A stretch of 64,000 nt of DNA from an uncultured Flammeovirgaceae bacterium (lineage in GTDB: Bacteria; Bacteroidota; Bacteroidia; Cytophagales; Cyclobacteriaceae): positions 1-64,000 of the forward strand of contig CAJWQD010000008.1 of assembly GCA_913045135.1 (NCBI GenBank), given 5' to 3'. The stretch's first letter is position 1. Each line of letters starts with the position of its first letter. Below, piece after piece: positions 47,683-59,594 of the stretch. The translations under genes were made by a program, and so were the position numbers. Under the pieces are notes generated by a model, which was not told the DNA's origin, did not search any database, and saw nothing but the letters and a program-made list of their open reading frames with translations.

Positions 47683-48277
47683 TTTCATACCTAAGTCAAA
47701 ATAGACATATTAGGATTGAGCGTTCATAAATATTTTAAGATTCATCTTGTATTTAAATTGAGTTATATGCCTGGCTTTTCTAAATACAAATAATGTTGTT
47801 TAATCAGTATTTTTTCTCAATTCAATCGGAAAAAAATATGAAAAAGTTGAGAGAAAAGATCTTTGTTCTTGTGAAAGTGGGACAAAAATTATTATGTAAT
47901 AAAAGATATTGCTATTCACAATGTAATATATTCTTTTGGATAATTGATTTATTGCTTGTTGTATTTATCAAACTATCTATAGATAGTTTGATAAAAGCCA
48001 ATAGATCGTGAATATGCGACTCTAAGGACAGGCTCCAGCAATTAGAGTATGGTCATCAGCTCATGGTCATTGACATGATGCCAAACTGTGTAAGGTTAAG
48101 AAAGTGCTAATACAGTAAATTTTTGTAAAACGAAATGTTTTAAAACAAAGCTCTTGAATGTAAGAATTTTTCTTGTTTCAGTATTATTTTAAGATTTATA
48201 ATTTTATCAAATGGAGGGGATTTCCTATAAATACTCTATATTTCCACATTTAATTTGTGTTGATGCAGGAAAATAAA
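47683..48277. other. Gene-free stretch containing a perfect palindrome
   Basis: About 600 bases between pruA and the CotH gene. A 72-codon plus-strand frame at 47793-48011 has no family features, and its end runs over the palindrome at 47964-47995, so it is not called. The 3' part is AT-rich and probably holds the CotH promoter, but no convincing -7 element is seen. Confidence 0.4.
47964..47995. repeat. Perfect 32-base palindrome
   Basis: The sequence is identical to its own reverse complement over 32 bases, centred between 47979 and 47980 (arms TTTATCAAACTATCTA and TAGATAGTTTGATAAA). There is no spacer and no T-run on either side, so it is a poor intrinsic terminator. An operator for a dimeric regulator or a cruciform-forming site is possible. 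It sits about 280 bases upstream of the CotH gene. Confidence 0.8.
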
Positions 48278-50875
48278 ATGAGATATTTATTTACATTTTT
48301 AATTAGTTCAATTTGCACATTTTGCTATTCGCAAATAGATCATTGGGAGAGTGTTGTTCTCCCGGGTGATTATTGGTTTTATATGATACCGAGTAGCCAA
48401 CCAAGCGCGTCATGGAATCTACTTAATTTTGATGAATCAAATTGGTCCCAAGGGATGTCTGGATTTGGCTATGGAGATGATGATGATTCTACTTTAGTTC
48501 CTGAAAATACCATTTCAGTTTACTTGAGAAAAACTTTTGAGATTATTGATATCAATGCAATTGACAAGATACGATTAGACATTGACTATGATGATGGATT
48601 TGTGGCGTATCTCAATGGTCAAGAAATTGCTAGGGATCTAGTTTCGGGAGCTATCCCTCGATATGATCAATTAAGCGATGGACATCACAACGCGTTATTG
48701 CCTGATGGTCAAAAACCAGAATTTTTTTATTTCGATATGGATCTTTTGGTGGAAGGGCCTAATGTCATTGCCGTACAAGTACACAATCAATCAAGTACTT
48801 CATCTGATCTGACAGCATTACCGGTACTATCACTGGGGATCAATAATGTTGAATACAATTATCGAAGTACTCCAAATTGGTTTTCAGCTCCTATTTTTGT
48901 CGATTTTCAATCATCCAACTTACCTATTGTAGTTATAGAAACGGTTAATAATCAATCTATTCCACAAGAACCTAAAATTAATGCAAATATGATTATTTTG
49001 GATAGAGGATTGGGGCAAAGAAATGATATTTCTGATTTGTCTAATCATGATCATGTAGATTTTAATGGGGCCATAAAGATAGAAGTGCGTGGTTCATCAT
49101 CATCTCTATTACCAAAAAAGCAATATGCTTTAACTACTTATGATAGCCTGGGTCAGAAGGCCAACGTGGAAATATTGGGAATGCCTAAAGAAAATGATTG
49201 GATTTTAAATGGTATAGCTTATGATTCTTCCCTAATCAGAGATTACATAAGTTATCAATTATCAAATAGAATTGGGCAGTACGCCTCTAGAGGTAAATAC
49301 TGCGAAGTTATGCTGAATGGTAATTATGAAGGGATTTATATTTTTCAAGAAAAATTAAAGATTGATGACAATAGAATAAATATAATAAAAATTCGTCCGG
49401 AGGATCTTTCACAATCCAATCTAACAGGAGGATATATAATTAAGACAGATAAAATTGAGGGCGCAGATTTGGAAGCTTGGAGTATGCCCAACTATAGTGG
49501 ATGGAGGAGTAGCTTTGTCCATGAATATCCGAAGTCTACAGAGATAAAACCGGCGCAACACGATTACATTAAAGGGGAGTTTGAGCGTTTGGCAAATACA
49601 TCAAGTAACAAAAATAGCTCCTTCGAGGATGGATATCCATCTGTGATTGATGTTCCTTCATTTATTGATTTTATGATTTTAAATGAGTTTTCAGCAAATG
49701 TAGATGGCTATCAGTTTAGTACTTTCTTTCATAAAGAGCGTAATGGAAAATTACGTGCAGGCCCTATTTGGGATTTTAATTTAACGTTTGGTAATGATCT
49801 TTTCCTTTGGGGGTATGATCGAAGTTTTACTTTTGGGTGGCAGTTTGATGATGGAGATAATGTGGGAGCAAAATTTTGGAAAGATTTATTTGATGACCCA
49901 GTTTATAAATGTTATCTGAGTAAAAGATGGCAAGAATTGACGAGTTCAGGAGGCCCATTAAATACTTCAGAGGTAATAAATTTTATTGATTCAACTGCAG
50001 TTTATATCTCGGAAGCGGCGATTCGACAAGAAACTTTATGGGGCACCAATGGTATTTTTGGTGAGCAGATCAGCGAACTAAAAAGGTTTATTGATGGCAG
50101 GAATAAATGGATATCTAGTCAGTTAGTAACCACAGGGACTTGTCTTGTAGTAACTCAGCCATCACTTGTAATTAGCAGAATAAATTATAATCCCTTGGCT
50201 GATGAGGATGAAGTATCAAGTGATTTTGAATTCATTGAGATTACCAATAATAGTGATATCTCTGTCGATCTTTCGGGTGTATATTTAGGTGGGCTAGGTC
50301 TTACATATCAATTTCTTCGAGGAATATCTATGGGTGCTAATACTAGTTTATTTCTAGCTAATGACACAAAATCATTTGAAGATCGTTATGGATTCATTCC
50401 TTTTGATGAATTTACGAGAAGTTTATCTAATGAGAGTGAGAAAATTTTATTGTTAGATGGTTATGGAAATACAATAGACGAGGTTACTTATAGTGATAGT
50501 TCTCCATGGCCATTAGAACCAGATGGTTCAGGTCCTTTTTTGGTGTTAAAAGGATTCGAGCTAGACAATAATGAAGGAGTAAATTGGGAGTCAGCATTTA
50601 ATTTACCTGCTAATGTGAGCGCTTTGGGGAGATTAAATATTTCAAAACCTTTAGTTTCCATTTTCCCTAATCCGTCCAGGGATAGGTTATATATTCATTC
50701 AAAGGGAAAAGTTAAGCAAGTTAATATTTGGAATGTTGGGGGAAAACGTTTGGGTCAATATATCTTTAAAAGTGAAGAGGTTGAACTGGATTTGAATAGT
50801 TTCAAGAGAGGAACTTATCATATTGAGATAAAAACTGATAAAGGACAATATTTAAGAAAAGTAATAAAAAATTAA
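48278..50875 (+). CDS. CotH-kinase protein with lamin-tail domain and T9SS tail
   Basis: An 865-residue exported protein. ATG at 48278 gives a clean signal peptide (cleavage near F-C-Y-S-Q) and is preceded by AGGA; an upstream GTG would add 7 residues. Residues about 25-190 form a beta domain with D-Y-D-D-G-F-V-A-Y-L-N-G-Q. The CotH-like kinase domain (about 215-590) has G-K-Y-C-E-V-M-L-N-G-N-Y-E-G-I-Y and G-P-I-W-D-F-N-L-T. A lamin-tail domain follows (F-E-F-I-E-I-T-N). The end, V-S-I-F-P-N-P-S then G-T-Y-H-I-E-I, is a type A T9SS sorting tail, so the product goes to the surface or outside. Confidence 0.88.
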   Translation: MRYLFTFLISSICTFCYSQIDHWESVVLPGDYWFYMIPSSQPSASWNLLNFDESNWSQGMSGFGYGDDDDSTLVPENTISVYLRKTFEIIDINAIDKIRLDIDYDDGFVAYLNGQEIARDLVSGAIPRYDQLSDGHHNALLPDGQKPEFFYFDMDLLVEGPNVIAVQVHNQSSTSSDLTALPVLSLGINNVEYNYRSTPNWFSAPIFVDFQSSNLPIVVIETVNNQSIPQEPKINANMIILDRGLGQRNDISDLSNHDHVDFNGAIKIEVRGSSSSLLPKKQYALTTYDSLGQKANVEILGMPKENDWILNGIAYDSSLIRDYISYQLSNRIGQYASRGKYCEVMLNGNYEGIYIFQEKLKIDDNRINIIKIRPEDLSQSNLTGGYIIKTDKIEGADLEAWSMPNYSGWRSSFVHEYPKSTEIKPAQHDYIKGEFERLANTSSNKNSSFEDGYPSVIDVPSFIDFMILNEFSANVDGYQFSTFFHKERNGKLRAGPIWDFNLTFGNDLFLWGYDRSFTFGWQFDDGDNVGAKFWKDLFDDPVYKCYLSKRWQELTSSGGPLNTSEVINFIDSTAVYISEAAIRQETLWGTNGIFGEQISELKRFIDGRNKWISSQLVTTGTCLVVTQPSLVISRINYNPLADEDEVSSDFEFIEITNNSDISVDLSGVYLGGLGLTYQFLRGISMGANTSLFLANDTKSFEDRYGFIPFDEFTRSLSNESEKILLLDGYGNTIDEVTYSDSSPWPLEPDGSGPFLVLKGFELDNNEGVNWESAFNLPANVSALGRLNISKPLVSIFPNPSRDRLYIHSKGKVKQVNIWNVGGKRLGQYIFKSEEVELDLNSFKRGTYHIEIKTDKGQYLRKVIKN

Positions 50876-51300
50876 ATCTCTATTTACCAGTTTTAAGGAA
50901 GATAGTGAGCTTGATTGAAATTGAGGTTAAATCTCAATTTATTAGTCGGATATTTTGAGGTAACAAGGTCCGTATAGTAAAGTGTGAAATATTTCAGACA
51001 ATTAACATTCGATCTACAAATTGTGCTTGAATAATTGATTACTTAATAATACAACCTTTATAGGAGCCTGGCAATCAATATAATCCTATTGTAATTTGAA
51101 TTAAATTTTGTTTAATAAAATCTTTTCTATTTTCCTTTTTCATGGATAATAAAAAATTCTTTCTCTTTTTGGTGTGCATCTTTTGACCAATATAAGAATC
51201 AGGAATTAGTATTCGGATAAAATTTTCCGACAAAGGTAGAAATATTTGTCATCCGGATTCATTGACAGAAAGTATTAAATGAATAACTTGTTTTACGAGA
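50876..51300. other. Gene-free stretch
   Basis: About 425 AT-rich bases between the CotH gene and the small Arg-rich genes. No coding frame, hairpin with T-run or repeat could be supported. Confidence 0.4.
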
Positions 51301-51531
51301 TCATTTTTGAAGTCGTCTTCGTGAAAGCCTACGTTCAGCTCTCCTTCCTTTATTACCTCTTCTAGGCAGTTCCTTTTTTAGGGAGTGTAATTGAGAATTT
51401 TGCGCTTCAATTATTCGCAGTTTTTCAACAATCGGGATAAAGTTGGAATATTTGATCGAATTTTTAGTGGGTTTTGCATTAATGAAAATTTGGCACAAAA
51501 ATGCTGCAAAAAATATTATGATTTTTTTCAT
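51301..51531 (-). CDS. Small exported Arg-rich protein (copy A)
   Basis: A 76-residue protein with a signal peptide of about 19 residues ending I-N-A, then about 30 residues with mixed charge, then a strongly basic tail: P-R-R-G-N-K-G-R-R-A-E-R-R-L-S-R-R-R-L-Q-K. No Cys is left after cleavage. The family is not recognised. A protein of the same design lies 71 bases upstream on the same strand. A basic exported peptide could bind nucleic acid, acidic polysaccharide or membranes; this is inference only. Confidence 0.55.
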   Translation of the reverse strand: MKKIIIFFAAFLCQIFINAKPTKNSIKYSNFIPIVEKLRIIEAQNSQLHSLKKELPRRGNKGRRAERRLSRRRLQK

Positions 51532-51602
51532 CGGAAATTTAAAAGTATTTTTATTAAACCTTTTTTTCGAATAGATTTAATATTTTTTTGATCAGAGGTT
51601 AT

Positions 51603-51824
51603 TTACTTCTCGACTCTTTTGTTTCTTCTAGCTTGTCTTTTCATCTTGCTTCTTCTTCTCCTTTGTTGTTGCATTTCATCTGAAGCGTTAACAAAGACTT
51701 TATTATTTTGATCTAGTTTGGCCAATAAAACTTTTTCTTTGATTTCTTTCGACGACTGCAAAGGAGAGGCTTGGGCAAACCCGAATGCCAATAATGTTAT
51801 GAAAATTGGAATTAATTTTTTCAT
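51603..51824 (-). CDS. Small exported Arg-rich protein (copy B)
   Basis: A 73-residue protein starting at the second of two adjacent Met codons (51824). The signal peptide ends F-A-Q-A at about residue 19, followed by a 30-residue segment with K-E-I-K-E-K-V-L-L-A-K-L-D and a basic tail Q-Q-Q-R-R-R-R-S-K-M-K-R-Q-A-R-R-N-K-R. It has the same order of parts as copy A, to which it is probably related though sequence identity outside the plan is low. Both are likely cotranscribed. Confidence 0.58.
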   Translation of the reverse strand: MKKLIPIFITLLAFGFAQASPLQSSKEIKEKVLLAKLDQNNKVFVNASDEMQQQRRRRSKMKRQARRNKRVEK

Positions 51825-51981
51825 CATGCTCTTTTTTTAATTAAAAAATTTAAATCAATTTAATATTTTTAATTTTGAAATGCAATGCAGACTAATAATT
51901 TCTTTATTTTCTGTGTATTTTAAACTAATTCTTACATTAGGGTCGAAGAAAAAAATCATGCAAAAAAGGTGCATTTTGTAA

Positions 51982-52077
51982 TTATTGCACAGGATCTAAA
52001 GCGAAACTTTTTCCCAAAACAATAGGTGTCCATACATCGGGTATGATTTCACCGAGCTCAGTCACGACAAATCTCCA
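51982..52077 (-). pseudogene. Short C-terminal coding remnant
   Basis: A 31-codon frame with no start codon, bounded upstream by a stop, reads W-R-F-V-V-T-E-L-G-E-I-I-P-D-V-W-T-P-I-V-L and ends S-F-A-L-D-P-V-Q. The composition is that of a real protein end, perhaps exported, but the family is not recognised. It lies in 51825-52168, where nothing else is seen. Confidence 0.3.
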
Positions 52078-52168
52078 ATTTTATTAAAATAATTCGTCAG
52101 GTAGTGTAAAAATATTTATAATAATTTTTTATCCTAGTGAAATTAAAGATGTATTTTTTGAGGAAGTT

Positions 52169-52931
52169 TTATTGTACAGTATTTGCGATCATCTGGAAAA
52201 TTGGCATATTGGTAAAGCCCTCAGGATTGTAGTCTTTCATTTTAGATTTCTTTGATAATTCTGTAGGTAATTCAAATCTAATTCGATAATTCATCAACTC
52301 TTCCAATGAATTGAACATATCCCATGTAGATACTTTGGCCCAATTAGTACCCTATGGGACAAGTTTTTTACCAACGCCCAAATTGACCATACCCATGCTG
52401 GCCATATTTTATTCGAAATAGGGTTTCCATAAGGTTAAATTTTCTTAAATGACCTCTCTACATTTTCTAGACGGGCAAAGTTGAATTGAATAAAACTACC
52501 TATTCCTTTGGCAAGACTACCTTCATCCTGATAGATATGTCTTGAATCAGCTGTTCAGTTGTGGGTAGCACTAAGGGCAGTTACTATAGCTTGTTCTTCT
52601 GAACTTTATACAGCGTCCGCTTGATTCCACCAGCTATTTTTTTCACTAAGCATTGTTCTGATATTAACATTTGACTGAACAAAAATATAATTATACCCTT
52701 CTTCATCATTTATATTGTCCATAGGGACATGTTTAAGAATGCCCAAAATGAGATATCTCCTTTTTCAGCAGCTTGTTTAGCTACTTTTTGCATATATAAT
52801 GATTGAATTTTTTCAAAGTTTTCCGTATTGCCTTCTATTCTTACAAAATGCATTGAATAAACACCATACACTTGTGCTTAGATTATGTAGTTACTTAATA
52901 AGAGAATTATTGAAGTAAATAAATTTCTCAT
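52169..52931 (-). pseudogene. Decayed copy of an exported two-repeat protein
   Basis: From ATG 52931 the frame can be followed to TAA at 52169 over about 254 codons with a signal-like start (M-R-N-L-F-T-S-I-I-L-L), about five in-frame stops and at least two frameshifts. Pieces: Y-S-M-H-F-V-R-I-E-G-N-T-E-N-F-E-K, F-V-Q-S-N-V-N-I-R-T-M, G-S-F-I-Q-F-N-F-A-R-L-E-N and N-W-A-K-V-S-T-W-D-M-F-N-S-L-E-E-L. Length and order of motifs match the intact gene at 54605-55348, so it is a diverged paralogue that has died. Confidence 0.82.
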
Positions 52932-53355
52932 TTCATTGTTGTTTTATAGGTAGGGATTAAATATAAAAAGTATTTAACTGGTAAAACATCAGATATGTGT
53001 TTTTTGTGAGGAATAGACCATGGCTTTTTGGAGGAATTTAGCAAATAATTGCTGTTGGTAATTGCAATATTTTACTTCCACTGTTAATTTTGGGAAAACA
53101 TTCGTCTTATTCTTTATTATTCGATAAATCGTGCCCTCATAAGTTATCTATCAAGAATAATTAAGTTCATTTTTTGATAAAAAATTGGGATTCGATTTGG
53201 TAAATAATGTTTTTCAAACCTCTTATTTGACATATTAAATTTCCCTTCTGGGTCCTTTCTTTTTCCTTTAATAGATTACTTTATTTAGCTTTTAAATTTC
53301 ATTATTATGTCATAAAATTCATCTTATGAAGAAATTATAAGTTTAATTTGTTATT
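52932..53355. other. Gene-free stretch
   Basis: About 420 AT-rich bases between the divergent pseudogene and the J-like gene. Nothing more is seen than a likely promoter region; no element could be picked with confidence. Confidence 0.4.
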
Positions 53356-54474
53356 ATGAAAGCGAAGTATAAAACCCTTGGACTTAAGAAGGGGGCTTCT
53401 CAGAAGGAGATCCAAGAGGCTTATGAGCGTTTAACTAAAAAGTTAGATCCTAAGGGCAACAATAACGATCCATTTTTTGAAGAGCAGCTCGCTAAAGTAA
53501 AGACAGCCTTCGAAGCCTTATCAAAGCATTTTATTTTGTCAAATAAAGAAGGAGGGAATTTTGTTGAAGAATATTCCAAGGAAAGAGGAAAAAAAAATAA
53601 GCATAAAAATAAGAATATCGGTAATGACATACCCGTAAAAGAGCTTAATTGGTTCCTTAAGATCTTCACTATTGGGGATAAGTTTAGTCTTCAAGATTTC
53701 CTTGATCGAGCTAAAAAAATGGTCGTTGAGTTTTTCGCTATTTTTTTTGGAGTATTTCTATCGTTGGCGGTCGATCAAAAGAGAGAGAATAGCAACCATC
53801 GAAGTGATAATATAAATAACATGAAAAAGTTGAAAGTCGAATTACAGGATATTCTCGTTTATACCGATGAATACATTGAGGGTGTTACGTGGTTCTATGA
53901 TCTTTTTCAAAGGCAATATGACCGTTGGGGTGAGAATAGCGATTCTGTCTTTTTGGATATTATGGGTGAAGGTGATGACGCTTATGCATTTGCTCCACTA
54001 AGTTTTTATGAACAAGCGATGCCTTACGATCCACCTAAAGTAGCTTATGAGTCTGTGCAGCTCGATGGCACTTTTCGATTTCTTGATGATACTTTAGAGC
54101 ATGAATTGACTCAAATATATTCTGGAAGTACATTATTTTACATTAAGGAAAATGCCTATGCCAGAGATCAAGCAATTGTTGATGATTTTGTATCTCGTAT
54201 TTCTGATCGTTGGGTGGAAGAGTTAGGTGATGTTAAAACTCAGTATAATTATTTTTGGGAGGACAATAGAGAATACATACAAAATGATTATTACATAAAT
54301 CATAATGTTTTTCGAAGGCTTGGGAATTTTAATCAAATTACAGATCAATTACTGGAGCATAAAGCGAGTGTCGAAGGGGCTATCTCCTTGTTAGATTCTA
54401 TATTGAAGCATAAGGAGGAAGAGTTTGAAATCATTTATTGGGTAGTTGATTTTGATTTTTTGCACAAGGAGTAA
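53356..54474 (+). CDS. Membrane protein with degenerate J-like domain and DUF6090-like region
   Basis: A 372-residue protein. Residues 1-58 align with a J domain (Y-K-T-L-G-L-K-K-G-A-S-Q-K-E-I and V-K-T-A-F-E-A-L-S), but the HPD triad needed to stimulate DnaK is replaced by D-P-K in K-K-L-D-P-K-G-N. A Lys-rich linker follows, then one transmembrane helix near residues 125-142 (F-F-A-I-F-F-G-V-F-L-S-L-A-V) and a Glu/Asp-rich helical domain resembling DUF6090-type proteins, probably outside the cytoplasm. Function unknown. It stands alone in an accessory region. Confidence 0.62.
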   Translation: MKAKYKTLGLKKGASQKEIQEAYERLTKKLDPKGNNNDPFFEEQLAKVKTAFEALSKHFILSNKEGGNFVEEYSKERGKKNKHKNKNIGNDIPVKELNWFLKIFTIGDKFSLQDFLDRAKKMVVEFFAIFFGVFLSLAVDQKRENSNHRSDNINNMKKLKVELQDILVYTDEYIEGVTWFYDLFQRQYDRWGENSDSVFLDIMGEGDDAYAFAPLSFYEQAMPYDPPKVAYESVQLDGTFRFLDDTLEHELTQIYSGSTLFYIKENAYARDQAIVDDFVSRISDRWVEELGDVKTQYNYFWEDNREYIQNDYYINHNVFRRLGNFNQITDQLLEHKASVEGAISLLDSILKHKEEEFEIIYWVVDFDFLHKE

Positions 54475-55501: not shown

Positions 55502-56452
55502 TTATTGCTGCTGTTGAATAAATTCCTGATTTTGAGCAAAGCTGTTTGATTTAGCGGATTGATTTGTTTCATGGGGGTTCATTTTTTTATTTTTTAGGTC
55601 AAATTCATTTTTTTTATTTGTTTGAACATTAACAAGTAACCTTGTATTTGAATCTCCTCTAAAAACACCTTTTACCGGAGAGCAGTCATTATAATTTCTT
55701 CCAACGCTTAATTTTACATGATGGCTCTTTGCTAAACAATTATTTGTGGGATCTAGACCAACCCAGCCATGGATAGGGATATAAATTTCAACCCAAGCAT
55801 GCGTTGCTCCAGACCCCCTAAAATCAGAATGGTCTTCCGGGCATATGTATCCACTTACATATCTACTCGGAATCCCGTAAATCCTACACATTTGGATTAA
55901 AATGTTGCTAAAGTCTTGACAAACACCACATTTTAGATCCCAAACTTCTTCAAGTGAGGAATTTACATTAGTAATTCCTTTTTCATATTTAAATAGATTG
56001 TATACACTTTCGCAAAGCATTAAGCCAATTTCGAATGGACTCCATTTTTGAAAGTTAATAGGTAATATTTTTTTGAGTGCTTTATTTCCTTTAAATTTTT
56101 GATAGGGATAAAACAGATAGAATTCGATTGATTTTTGAAGGGTTGACAATTTTTCCCATTGCTTAAAGGGATTTTCACTGAGCTTAGGCATCGACACTTC
56201 ATATTGCTCTATTTCTATTTTTGAAATAATTTTTAAATAGTTGTGGGAATCAAAAAGATTAAAAGTTCCTACTTTATTACCGAAAAAGTCAAAATGAGTT
56301 GTAATCGATGGATTTTCAGTAATGAATAATTGATGGCGAATAATCTTTTGAAAATCACTGTTTACTGGATAAAGCTTTATTTGATTGGCTCTTTCTGAAA
56401 CCCAGCTATCACAATAAAATTCAGTAGAATGTCTCAGAAATATTTTACGCAT
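55502..56452 (-). CDS. Transglutaminase-like protein of the alpha-E cluster
   Basis: A 316-residue protein starting at ATG 56452 (M-R-K-I-F-L-R-H). An N-terminal bacterial transglutaminase-like domain is followed by the core with the Cys-His-Asp triad: C in C-G-V-C-Q-D-F-S near residue 178, H in A-T-H-A-W-V-E-I near 218 and D in G-L-D-P-T-N near 233. The tail after residue 290 is Gln/Asn/Lys-rich and looks disordered. The start overlaps the alpha-E gene by 8 bases. In the family such genes pair with ATP-grasp and alpha-E proteins; the enzyme may cut or join peptide bonds. Confidence 0.83.
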   Translation of the reverse strand: MRKIFLRHSTEFYCDSWVSERANQIKLYPVNSDFQKIIRHQLFITENPSITTHFDFFGNKVGTFNLFDSHNYLKIISKIEIEQYEVSMPKLSENPFKQWEKLSTLQKSIEFYLFYPYQKFKGNKALKKILPINFQKWSPFEIGLMLCESVYNLFKYEKGITNVNSSLEEVWDLKCGVCQDFSNILIQMCRIYGIPSRYVSGYICPEDHSDFRGSGATHAWVEIYIPIHGWVGLDPTNNCLAKSHHVKLSVGRNYNDCSPVKGVFRGDSNTRLLVNVQTNKKNEFDLKNKKMNPHETNQSAKSNSFAQNQEFIQQQQ

Positions 56453-57392
56453 GGGTTGGATTAATATAATGAAAATATTGGCTATCAATTTGCTCTGATA
56501 TTAACATGAGATCAGACTTGAGTGTTGTCAAAAAAATATTGGGTCCCATAGAATTTAAATTTTCAACTTTAGTGTAAAAAAGGCTGCTTTCAAGTTTTCC
56601 AACCAGGAAACTGAGGTCATTTGTTGACTTTATTTTATTAAAAGTGCTGAGTCGGCTAATATGCAAAGATAATTTTTGTGTACAGTAATAAATTGATCTT
56701 GGAAAATGAGGATTTAGAATGATCATTTCCATAATTTTTTCAGTTAGGAAAACAGACTTATGAGTTTTAATATATTGTTGATAACCACCAATTGAAATTA
56801 ATAAATATTTCCAATATATATTTTCTTCTAATGCATCAATACTTTTTACAGAACTCAGTTTACGTGAAAGTAAAAACTCAGTACTTTGAAAAAGCCTCTC
56901 CAGATATTTACCAATATTCATAAAGCAATAGGCATTCCCTCTTTCTTGGGTAACATCAGAGGTGCTGAGGTGGATCATATGATAATTTAAAATTTCATCA
57001 ATCAATAATATTGGATCTTCTTTTTGGAATCTTGATCGTATATTTTTTTTTGTAATGGCAAGAAAGTATTTATTTATATTAAGCCACATTTCAGTGGATA
57101 TATGTCCTTGCACGCTCCTGGCATTTTCTCTTGACTTCTTGATTAAATTAATTACTGTATTGGGATTATTGAGGTCTAAAATCATATATTTTAAAATTTC
57201 CATAGCACTTCCTTCAATTAAGAGTTTTTGCTGTGGGATATCGCAATATGTAGTCAACATTTTGCCCCATGATTTTGGATTTTGAAAATCTTGATCAGAA
57301 AGATAATTAGCTTTTAAGAGGTTTAAAAGGCCATTTGATCTTTCAATATATCGTTCCAACCAAAAAAGGTTATTTGCTACTCTGCTTAACAT
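56445..57392 (-). CDS. Alpha-E domain protein (DUF403)
   Basis: A 315-residue all-helical protein opening with M-L-S-R-V-A-N-N-L-F-W-L-E-R-Y-I-E-R-S, the signature of alpha-E/DUF403 proteins. Further helices contain Y-C-F-M-N-I-G-K-Y-L-E-R. No catalytic residues are known. It is the middle gene of an overlapping trio: its start lies 23 bases inside the ATP-grasp gene and its end overlaps the transglutaminase gene by 8 bases. A scaffold or substrate-handling role for the ATP-grasp partner is inferred from gene order. Confidence 0.85.
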   Translation of the reverse strand: MLSRVANNLFWLERYIERSNGLLNLLKANYLSDQDFQNPKSWGKMLTTYCDIPQQKLLIEGSAMEILKYMILDLNNPNTVINLIKKSRENARSVQGHISTEMWLNINKYFLAITKKNIRSRFQKEDPILLIDEILNYHMIHLSTSDVTQERGNAYCFMNIGKYLERLFQSTEFLLSRKLSSVKSIDALEENIYWKYLLISIGGYQQYIKTHKSVFLTEKIMEMIILNPHFPRSIYYCTQKLSLHISRLSTFNKIKSTNDLSFLVGKLESSLFYTKVENLNSMGPNIFLTTLKSDLMLISEQIDSQYFHYINPTHA

Positions 57393-58854
57393 TCGAATTC
57401 TTTGAATAATTATTCAATACCCAAGTATCTTTACTACCGCCTCCTTGAGAGCTATTAACTACAAGAGAACCTTCTTCTAATGCAACTCTTGTTAATCCAC
57501 CTGGGCAAACGTGAATACCGTTTGCACCAGTAAAGGCAAAAGGTCTGAAATCAACGCATCGAGGCTTAAATTGTCTGTCTATATAGCATGGTGCAGTCGA
57601 TAAATTCAAAATTGGTTGAGCGATGTAGCCATCTGGATTTAGTAGAATTTGTTTTTTATAATCATCAATTTCTTTGTCCGAAGCATCTTTTCCAATCAGC
57701 ATTCCATAACCTCCGCTTCCATTAGTCTTTTTGATTACCATTTTGTCCATATTTTTAAGTGTAAACTCAAGTTCATCCGGGCGCCCTAGTTTGTAAGTTT
57801 TAATATTGTTTAAAATAGGTTCTTCATTTAGGTAGTATTTTACCATGTCAGGAACGTAAGTGTATGTGGCTTTATCGTCGGCAACTCCGGTACCGGGAGC
57901 ATTTACTATGGCTACATTTCCTTTGCGATAAACAGACATAATAGAAGAAATACCAAGTTTGCTGTTGGCATTAAAAACAAGTGGATCTAAAAAATCGTCA
58001 TCAATTCTTCTGTAAATAACATCTACGCGCTTAAATCCTTCAATATTTTTCATATATACAAAATGATCTTTAACGAATAAATCTTGACCTTCAACTAATT
58101 CAATCCCCATCAACCGGGCTAAAGTTGCATGTTCGTAATACGCAGAGTTTAGCACACCTGGGGTAAGTAATACTACATTTGGATTAGATTGTTTTGATAT
58201 ACTTTGGAGATGATTGTAAAGAATTTGAGGTGAATTTGAAATGTTAGAAATCTTTGAGGCATTGACTGCACCGGGGAATATACGTTTCGAAATTTCCCTA
58301 TTTTGAAGCATATAACTCAGTCCTGATGGTGTTCTAAGATTATCTTCTAAAACATAAAATTCACCATCATTATCGCGAATCAAATCTATTCCGGAGATGT
58401 GATTATAGATATCAAATGGTACATTCAGGCCATTCATTTCTTCGAGAAAATTATGACTAGACATTATTTGGTCAACTGGTATTATTCCATCTTTGATTAT
58501 GAATTTCTCATGGTATGTATCTTTAAGAAAAAAGTTTAATGCTTTAATCCTTTGGATAATTCCTCTTTCTATTTTGTCCCATTCTTTAGCTGAGATGATC
58601 CTTGGAATTACATCGAATGGGAAAATCTTTTCTGTACCTACTTTGTCTTCATAGACAGTAAATGTCACACCTTGATCAATGAATAGTTGAGAAGATAATT
58701 CTTCTTTTTTATCCAATTCTTCGATGTGGATTTTATCTAATATTGTTTTTAGATTTTGATAGTGTTTTTTAATTTGATTTGTATCAGTGAACATTTCATC
58801 TAGGCTATTTTCACGAAATGTATATTGGTCAAATGGGTGGGAATGAAAGCACAT
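57370..58854 (-). CDS. Circularly permuted ATP-grasp type 2 protein (DUF404/DUF407)
   Basis: A roughly 494-residue ATP-grasp enzyme. The ATG at 58854 is preferred to a GTG 11 codons upstream that adds a hydrophobic stretch. Family segments: L-D-E-M-F, F-P-F-D-V-I-P-R-I-I, L-E-D-N-L-R-T-P-S-G-L-S-Y-M, V-V-L-L-T-P-G, V-I-Y-R-R-I-D-D-D-F-L-D-P, and I-K-K-T-N-G-S-G-G-Y-G-M-L-I-G near the end. ATP-grasp enzymes ligate a carboxylate to an amine; here the product may be a peptide or isopeptide. It is the first gene of the trio. Confidence 0.88.
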   Translation of the reverse strand: MCFHSHPFDQYTFRENSLDEMFTDTNQIKKHYQNLKTILDKIHIEELDKKEELSSQLFIDQGVTFTVYEDKVGTEKIFPFDVIPRIISAKEWDKIERGIIQRIKALNFFLKDTYHEKFIIKDGIIPVDQIMSSHNFLEEMNGLNVPFDIYNHISGIDLIRDNDGEFYVLEDNLRTPSGLSYMLQNREISKRIFPGAVNASKISNISNSPQILYNHLQSISKQSNPNVVLLTPGVLNSAYYEHATLARLMGIELVEGQDLFVKDHFVYMKNIEGFKRVDVIYRRIDDDFLDPLVFNANSKLGISSIMSVYRKGNVAIVNAPGTGVADDKATYTYVPDMVKYYLNEEPILNNIKTYKLGRPDELEFTLKNMDKMVIKKTNGSGGYGMLIGKDASDKEIDDYKKQILLNPDGYIAQPILNLSTAPCYIDRQFKPRCVDFRPFAFTGANGIHVCPGGLTRVALEEGSLVVNSSQGGGSKDTWVLNNYSKNSNVKQSSK

Positions 58855-59594
58855 ATACGATATTAATAACAATTTTGCTAAAATCACTATTTATTTGTAT
58901 TAATACTTATTTTTTATTGAAATGTCTTCTAGAAATATTCAATAAAATTACAGATAACTTATTTTACAGATTAATAAATAGCTATTTATAAAACTTATTC
59001 CTAGAAATACATTGCCAGTATTTTTCTAAATCGTGTAATTATCAAGAATAAAAAACTTAAAATAGGTAGTTGATGAAATGTTTTTGATTACCGTGTCAAA
59101 GCTTCATTTTAAAGTTTTAGTAATAGTTACGTTAAATCTTGAAGAGTAGATAATCAGCGTCTCTAGATTGATCTTGAATATAGCACGTTACTCGGCTAAG
59201 GATATCTGAGTTTAAGAGCATTCACTAATAACATTTTTGAAGAAGGAAAGTCCGTGAGATTGAGATGATGTTCTATTTGATCAATTACAATTGATAGCGG
59301 GGATAGGTTGTCAAGATTTTAAATTATTTTTATCTAGGGCTAGGCCAGGGATGTTTAGCTATCATCAATAGGCATATTGTTAAAGATGTAAGTTTCCAAG
59401 CATTATTTTTTTTAAAGTTATTTTAACTCCTAAAATATTATTTTGAAACGGTTTAAACAGATAGCTTTTGTTGTATCACATAAATATCCGATTTATTTTA
59501 TTGAAATAAGTATAAGTTTGAAATTTAGTTAGCTAAAGTTCAATTGTGAATTGGAATTTAAAAATGCCATAATTTGTATATTCAATAATGATAG
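58855..59594. other. Gene-free stretch
   Basis: About 740 bases without a supported gene. A loose hairpin with arms TATTGAA and TTCAATA lies near 58915-58945. GGAAAGTCC at about 59245-59253 recalls RNase P RNA but no other part of that RNA is present. The promoter of the ATP-grasp operon should lie at the low-coordinate end. Confidence 0.4.

What the first reader, a model, noticed from the sequence alone, without database searches (positions are those of the whole stretch)
51301..51824. Tandem pair of tiny exported proteins with Arg-rich tails
Two adjacent genes encode 73-76 residue proteins of the same plan: signal peptide, about 30-residue middle and a tail with 8-11 Arg. They are too short and too divergent for easy annotation. 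Possible roles include binding extracellular DNA or acidic polymers, antimicrobial activity, or being modified or cross-linked after export; the last would fit with the transglutaminase operon 4 kb away, though nothing proves a link.
Basis: partly seen in the sequence, partly recalled or inferred. Interest (0 to 1): 0.6.

Follow-up and report, generated by a model that had tools for sequence, protein, structure and literature searches.

The report
Genus-only exported proteins with basic tails
Two neighbouring genes of a probably marine bacterium encode tiny proteins that look exported and end in a strongly positively charged tail; they are real, fast-changing genes kept by nearly all sequenced relatives in the genus, but what they do is not known.

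Summary
Two minus-strand genes, A (51603-51827, 74 aa) and B (51301-51531, 76 aa), share a plan: signal peptide, spacer, tail with 12 and 11 Lys+Arg of 22 residues. Homologues of A lie at the same place in 8 of 9 other genomes of the genus, a Cyclobacteriaceae clade; the ninth also lacks close copies of both adjoining genes tested. B is a paralogue of A. All 14 copies keep 9-13 Lys+Arg in the last 22 residues while the sequence drifts. dN/dS of close A copies (0.24-0.55) shows a constrained protein-coding gene, looser than the neighbouring CotH gene (0.10-0.14). Pfam, NCBIfam, PHROG and PDB gave no significant match. One protein of the same plan was seen outside the genus, homology unproven. 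The transglutaminase link fails: its operon partner PF04168 is in 2 of 10 genus genomes, one of which lacks A/B. Best reading: a Sec-exported polycation binding acidic polymers (inferred, 0.4). Rivals: cationic prepropeptide, substrate of the CotH-type kinase, regulatory or toxin-like peptide. Modest interest.

The parts
51603..51827 (-). gene A, 74 aa (73 from the second ATG at 51824): putative exported protein with basic tail
   Evidence: ORF; homologues in 8 of 9 other genus genomes; dN/dS 0.24-0.55 among five close copies of A
51768..51824 (-). gene A, putative Sec signal peptide (residues 1-19 of MKK..., ending ..FAQA)
   Evidence: sequence; hydropathy rule; aligned with relatives; no predictor run
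51603..51671 (-). gene A, basic tail (last 22 residues and stop)
   Evidence: 12 K+R of 22
51301..51531 (-). gene B, 76 aa, paralogue of A
   Evidence: ORF; homologues in G001 and G002; hhalign of A and B profiles 97.8%
51475..51531 (-). gene B, putative Sec signal peptide (residues 1-19)
   Evidence: sequence; hydropathy rule
51301..51369 (-). gene B, basic tail (last 22 residues and stop)
   Evidence: 11 K+R of 22; RRG and RAER stretch shared by the three B copies
48257..50875 (+). convergent neighbour (context, not part of the pair): CotH-type kinase with LTD and T9SS sorting tail
   Evidence: Pfam CotH 2.3e-52, LTD, Por_Secre_tail; next large ORF beyond A/B in 8 of 9 genomes with A
52172..52931 (-). 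decayed copy of a 254-aa putative exported-protein gene that lies upstream of A in relatives (context)
   Evidence: tblastn with the intact G002 protein: three pieces in three frames, 73-77% identity

Best explanation
A and B are small Sec-exported polycations. The signal peptide takes the chain across the inner membrane; a spacer of about 27-35 residues, net acidic in 10 of 14 copies, lets export begin before the charged tail arrives; the mature protein of about 49-57 residues then presents 9-13 Lys/Arg that bind an acidic polymer in the periplasm or outside the cell (lipopolysaccharide, acidic exopolysaccharide or DNA). Shown: the genes, the plan, their conservation and the keeping of charge in the genus. 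Inferred: export, cleavage, place, ligand and role.
For: 14 of 14 copies have 9-13 K+R in the last 22 residues, 13 of 14 have 11-13, with Lys and Arg swapped freely while the sequence drifts. In an unselected simulation from one tail K+R fell to 6.4 (sd 1.7) at 40% identity, and 0 of 1000 runs kept 12. The spacer of the nine A copies is net 0 to -6, which fits the rule that positive charge just after a signal peptide hinders Sec export (recalled; the passages of PMC9360617 seen do not state it). Tails have 2-4 hydrophobic residues of 22, so they look like charge carriers more than membrane-piercing helices. Both AF2 models show helices only and no packed fold (mean pLDDT 70 and 73, pTM 0.23 and 0.26).
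Against: No binding, transcript or proteome data. Polymer binding is the default reading of any basic tail. Four of 14 spacers are not net acidic: G000 A 0, G000 B +4, the G006 pair +1 each (the fixed 22-residue cut leaves part of the G006 basic stretch in the spacer). The three B tails share specific residues, more than charge alone needs. The models give the tails as helices with pLDDT about 74-85, the highest beside the signal peptide, so they may be structured. The simulation uses one start tail and a simple mutation model.
Confidence: 0.4

Rival explanations
1. Prepropeptide of a cationic antimicrobial or signalling peptide: after the signal peptide is removed, an exported protease cuts near the kept S-x-E-M-P motif and frees the basic tail; the acidic spacer is the inhibitory pro-part.
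For: Order signal peptide, mostly acidic spacer, short kept motif (S48, E50, M51 invariant, P52 in 8 of 9 A copies), cationic tail; faster drift than the CotH neighbour; tandem duplication; a further A copy on a G001 contig among dispersed repeats.
Against: None of the eight other window proteins scanned between 44235 and 58887 matched a transporter, immunity or peptidase family (not all ORFs there were scanned, and the relatives' extra genes were not annotated). Tails have 2-4 hydrophobic residues of 22, few for a membrane-active peptide (recalled). Window A lacks the Pro of the motif.
Confidence: 0.2
2. Substrate of the convergent CotH-type kinase, which would phosphorylate Ser/Thr in the basic tail, as CotH does with the Ser/Lys/Arg repeats of CotB and CotG in Bacillus spores.
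For: The CotH gene is the next large ORF beyond A/B in 8 of 9 genomes with A; G008 lacks A and a close CotH copy; the known substrates are Ser/Lys/Arg-rich (PMC7821199, passages).
Against: Tail Ser/Thr/Tyr number 0-5; the three B tails have one Ser, one Thr and none. No repeats. The whole region is syntenic, so neighbourhood says little. In G006 five ORFs of 120 aa or more lie between.
Confidence: 0.1
3. Regulatory or toxin-like small membrane peptide: an uncleaved N-terminal segment with the basic tail acting on the ribosome or membrane (SecM-type arrest peptide, or type I toxin-like peptide).
For: Small, tandem, narrow distribution; weak NCBIfam SecM_small match of A (E 0.027, 15.3 bits against a cut-off of 45).
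Against: No same-strand ORF of 120 aa or more follows before the convergent gene, whereas the Sec arrest peptides described lie upstream of sec or yidC genes (PMC10987492, passages). A kept Ala before a possible cleavage site. No Rfam match at gathering threshold in 50800-53400, which does not exclude an undescribed antisense RNA.
Confidence: 0.1

Closest known systems
CotB and CotG spore coat proteins (substrates of CotH kinase)
   Same: basic stretch rich in Lys/Arg; CotH-type kinase gene nearby
   Different: no direct repeats, few Ser, putative signal peptide; much smaller and not from a spore former (size and spore remark recalled)
SecM-type arrest peptides
   Same: signal sequence plus a distinctive C-terminal stretch in a small protein
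   Different: no sec or yidC gene downstream; SecM model far below cut-off; tail drifts freely
Cationic antimicrobial prepropeptides and protamine-like polycations (from general knowledge)
   Same: Arg/Lys-rich end; in precursors also signal and acidic part
   Different: no sequence relation found in the libraries searched; few hydrophobic residues; no activity known
69-aa protein of genome G322 (L137:1489-1698 minus), another family of the same order
   Same: signal peptide, about 24-residue spacer, 13 K+R in the last 22; profile match over 1-67 of 71, E 3.0e-4 for that genome, in a search of 291 genomes
   Different: homology unproven, the match may rest on signal peptide and composition; other neighbours within the 3.2 kb seen

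Membership tests
CotB/CotG-type CotH substrates | Ser/Lys/Arg direct repeats | tested here: not met
   22-residue tails without repeats by eye, 0-5 S/T/Y
CotB/CotG-type CotH substrates | phosphorylated by CotH | not testable with these tools
   needs a kinase assay
SecM-type arrest peptides | same-strand sec or yidC gene directly downstream | tested here: not met
   convergent CotH gene in 8 of 9 genomes; in G006 another plus-strand ORF
SecM-type arrest peptides | curated SecM model score | tested here: not met
   15.3 bits against cut-off 45
Cationic antimicrobial peptide precursors | mature peptide cationic and rich in hydrophobic residues | tested here: not met
   2-4 hydrophobic of 22 in the tails; the criterion is recalled and not all such peptides meet it
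Cationic antimicrobial peptide precursors | inhibits other cells | not testable with these tools
   needs an assay
Type I toxin peptides | antisense RNA opposite the toxin gene | tested here: inconclusive
   no Rfam match at gathering threshold; promoter-like sites at chance level, 15 against 12.4
Any Pfam, NCBIfam or PHROG family | match at curated or significant score | tested here: not met
   5, 6 and 5 copies of the family scanned (23; 24); best E 0.0049, signal-peptide part, 17 bits against cut-off 35
Transglutaminase substrate | co-occurs with the transglutaminase operon | tested here: not met
   PF04168 in 2 of 10 genus genomes, A in 9 of 10, both in 1; the transglutaminase gene itself was not searched genus-wide

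The most novel reading that the evidence does not exclude
A so far undescribed class of exported protamine-like proteins in Cytophagales, selected for tail charge and not for sequence, that coats or compacts an acidic polymer at the cell surface of marine bloom-associated bacteria; the G322 protein would be a second, perhaps independent, instance of the same design.
Probability: 0.2. Interest if true: 0.5.

Novelty: new member of a known kind. Interest (0 to 1): 0.3.

Why it matters
Small exported proteins that keep charge but not sequence escape normal annotation. Here synteny across the genus makes one such family traceable and testable. If the tails bind surface polymers, it would add a simple building principle for the envelope of marine Bacteroidota; if they are peptides freed by cleavage, they could be new antimicrobials or signals. 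As it stands it is one more lineage-restricted family of unknown function.

Tried and rejected
Transglutaminase link: rejected as a kept partnership. Pfam, NCBIfam, PHROG, PDB and Rfam gave nothing significant for the family; PADLOC was not searched. Viral contigs: for A2 10 pattern stretches and for the G322 protein 76, none a relative; plasmids with A and phages with the G322 protein: no match. A recalled Bacteroidota-type -33/-7 promoter pattern was found upstream of 0 of 14 copies; a -7-like element alone in three, G004, G005 and G007. Sigma-70-like sites were at chance level and no terminator was found. No convincing trace of B in the A-to-CotH gap of the five A-only genomes with that layout, G003, G004, G005, G007, G009. 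Both models were too uncertain for a fold search, so none was run. Integron idea for the repeat islands: TIGR02249 passed its cut-off in 0 of 10 genomes, though G007 and G004 have a tyrosine recombinase with sub-cut-off pieces; a simple attC-like pattern gave no hit in the three loci scanned, L069, L113, L116. Paper searches, listings only; none of the listed papers describes such a family as far as titles and abstract starts show; the library holds open-licence papers alone. Passages were read of PMC7821199, PMC9360617, PMC10877868 and PMC10987492.

Limits of the counts: one search listed 12 weak places outside the genus that I did not read. The ORF that my script picked for L088 and L141 was plainly not the matched one. 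One search's first table read minus-strand loci in the wrong orientation and was redone. dN/dS was printed for 20 A pairs with pN below 0.35 and for 3 B pairs and the G006 pair; more distant A pairs were left out.

Full report
Observation. The window holds two minus-strand ORFs, A at 51603-51827 (74 aa) and B at 51301-51531 (76 aa), 71 bp apart. Both begin with Lys plus a hydrophobic stretch ending at a plausible signal peptidase site (judged by eye) and end in a tail with 12 and 11 Lys+Arg of 22. Among 102 window ORFs of 50-120 aa only these two have that plan; in 40 Markov copies of the window 1 of 4984 ORFs had it.

Relatives. The genome is fragmentary (2.1 Mb, 97 contigs, 82% complete). 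Five named records that encode A relatives are MAGs titled Flammeovirgaceae or Cyclobacteriaceae, one of them UBA4465; that they are marine I infer from the isolate names and from PMC10877868. A profile of 14 copies (A1) matches full length in 9 of 10 genus genomes, this one included. Those rows are in the profile, so the independent evidence is the single-protein search with A: E 4.4e-15 to 1.5e-5 for seven of the eight other genomes, but only 0.023 for G006, where orthology rests mainly on position. The tenth genome, G008 (84% complete), has no match beyond the signal peptide; its best hits to the CotH neighbour (42% over residues 27-169) and to the DnaJ-like neighbour (25%) are not close copies, so the locus may be absent or not assembled.

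B was found in this genome, G001 and G002. It is a paralogue of A (hhalign 97.8%, E 9.3e-13, in part through the signal peptide). G006 has its own Lys-rich tandem pair in the corresponding place. No other copy was found in this genome (next E 0.09, with stops inside).

Restriction. Of 196 family genomes searched, 6 genus members matched; the rest, about 190 (unlisted G008 may be among them), gave 21 places at E up to 0.01, all starting in the signal peptide or one residue on and reaching query position 62 of 71 at most. Of these 21 loci, read, one 130-aa protein (L096) also has a basic end but is otherwise different. Of 291 order genomes, two genus members matched; among the others one protein, G322 L137:1489-1698 minus, shows the whole plan, while 12 further weak places were not read. 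The family and order samples overlap. Homology of the G322 protein is not shown. In the 668 kb of loci held (overlaps included) the plan filter flagged members of the family and one unrelated membrane protein (L116:8007-8279); it missed G002 A, whose ORF starts further upstream.

Selection. Among five close A copies (G003, G004, G005, G007 and the second G001 copy; 10 pairs) dN/dS is 0.24-0.55; over all 20 A pairs printed it is 0.22-0.64, over the three B pairs 0.21-0.37, for the G006 pair 0.41. The CotH gene gives 0.10-0.14 for the six pairs of G003, G004, G005 and G007 (ratios of the printed values). So A is translated and constrained, but loosely. Tail charge is kept: 9-13 K+R of 22 in 14 of 14 copies, 11-13 in 13 of 14, against 6.4 (sd 1.7) without selection at 40% identity. 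Spacers: nine A copies net 0 to -6, B +4, -1 and -3, the G006 pair +1 each.

Surroundings. The CotH-type kinase gene (48257-50875, with a T9SS sorting tail) is the next ORF of 120 aa or more beyond A/B in 8 of 9 genomes; in G006 five such ORFs lie between. Upstream of A on the same strand, relatives have two proteins of about 250 aa with signal-like starts and no significant Pfam match. In this window the 254-aa one is broken into three frames at 52172-52931; the 249-aa one is broken in G003 and G005. A and B stay open in this decaying stretch, which speaks for a function of their own. The transglutaminase operon (55502-58887) is missing from the same interval in the six relatives whose stretch spans it, G002-G005, G007 and G009, and its Alpha-E gene occurs in G000 (two copies) and G008 alone.

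A further A copy. G001 contig C82 (L069) carries another A gene with a 25-nt repeat on either side, part of repeats found in islands of exported-protein genes of the genus. G001 is listed with 5% contamination, so the contig may belong to a relative; either way the family has a second genomic setting.

Mechanism. The most likely reading is a Sec-exported polycation that binds an acidic polymer: charge kept under free drift, few hydrophobic tail residues, a mostly acidic spacer and no packed fold in the models. Against it, the models give the tails as helices at pLDDT about 74-85, and B tails share specific residues, so a specific partner is possible. A cleaved cationic peptide is the main rival, helped by the kept S-x-E-M-P motif just before the tail. 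A CotH substrate is attractive by analogy with CotB/CotG (PMC7821199, passages), but the tails have few Ser/Thr and synteny alone explains the neighbourhood. An arrest peptide is unlikely because no large gene follows on the same strand (PMC10987492, passages). None of this has been tested at the bench.

Ecology. [quoted passage not shown]); the passage does not mention these genes.

Noticed in passing
loci L069, L113-L119 (G001:C82, G003:C4, G003:C11, G000:C44, G009:C6): Islands of single exported-protein or lipoprotein genes, mostly on one strand in the two stretches listed (L113, L116), with many partial copies of a 158-aa gene (L069:1764-2240 minus, no Pfam match) and a roughly 130-bp element on its 3' side holding a CTCCTAG...CTAGGAG hairpin. 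Not an integron by the tests made; might be a gene-shuffling system of this genus.
   Followed up: partly
52172-52931 minus: Gene for a 254-aa putative exported protein broken into three frames here, intact in several relatives.
   Followed up: yes
55502-58887 minus: Operon of CP_ATPgrasp_2, Alpha-E and transglutaminase-like genes, present here but not in the same interval of six relatives; a second Alpha-E gene at G000:C69.
   Followed up: partly
G322, locus L137:1489-1698 minus: 69-aa protein of the same plan with 13 K+R in the last 22 residues, in another family of the order.
   Followed up: partly
L069:2753-3433 plus: MerB-like gene (alkylmercury lyase, PF03243, E 5.1e-35) on a contig with the island repeats; a 92% identical stretch in G003:C4.
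   Followed up: no
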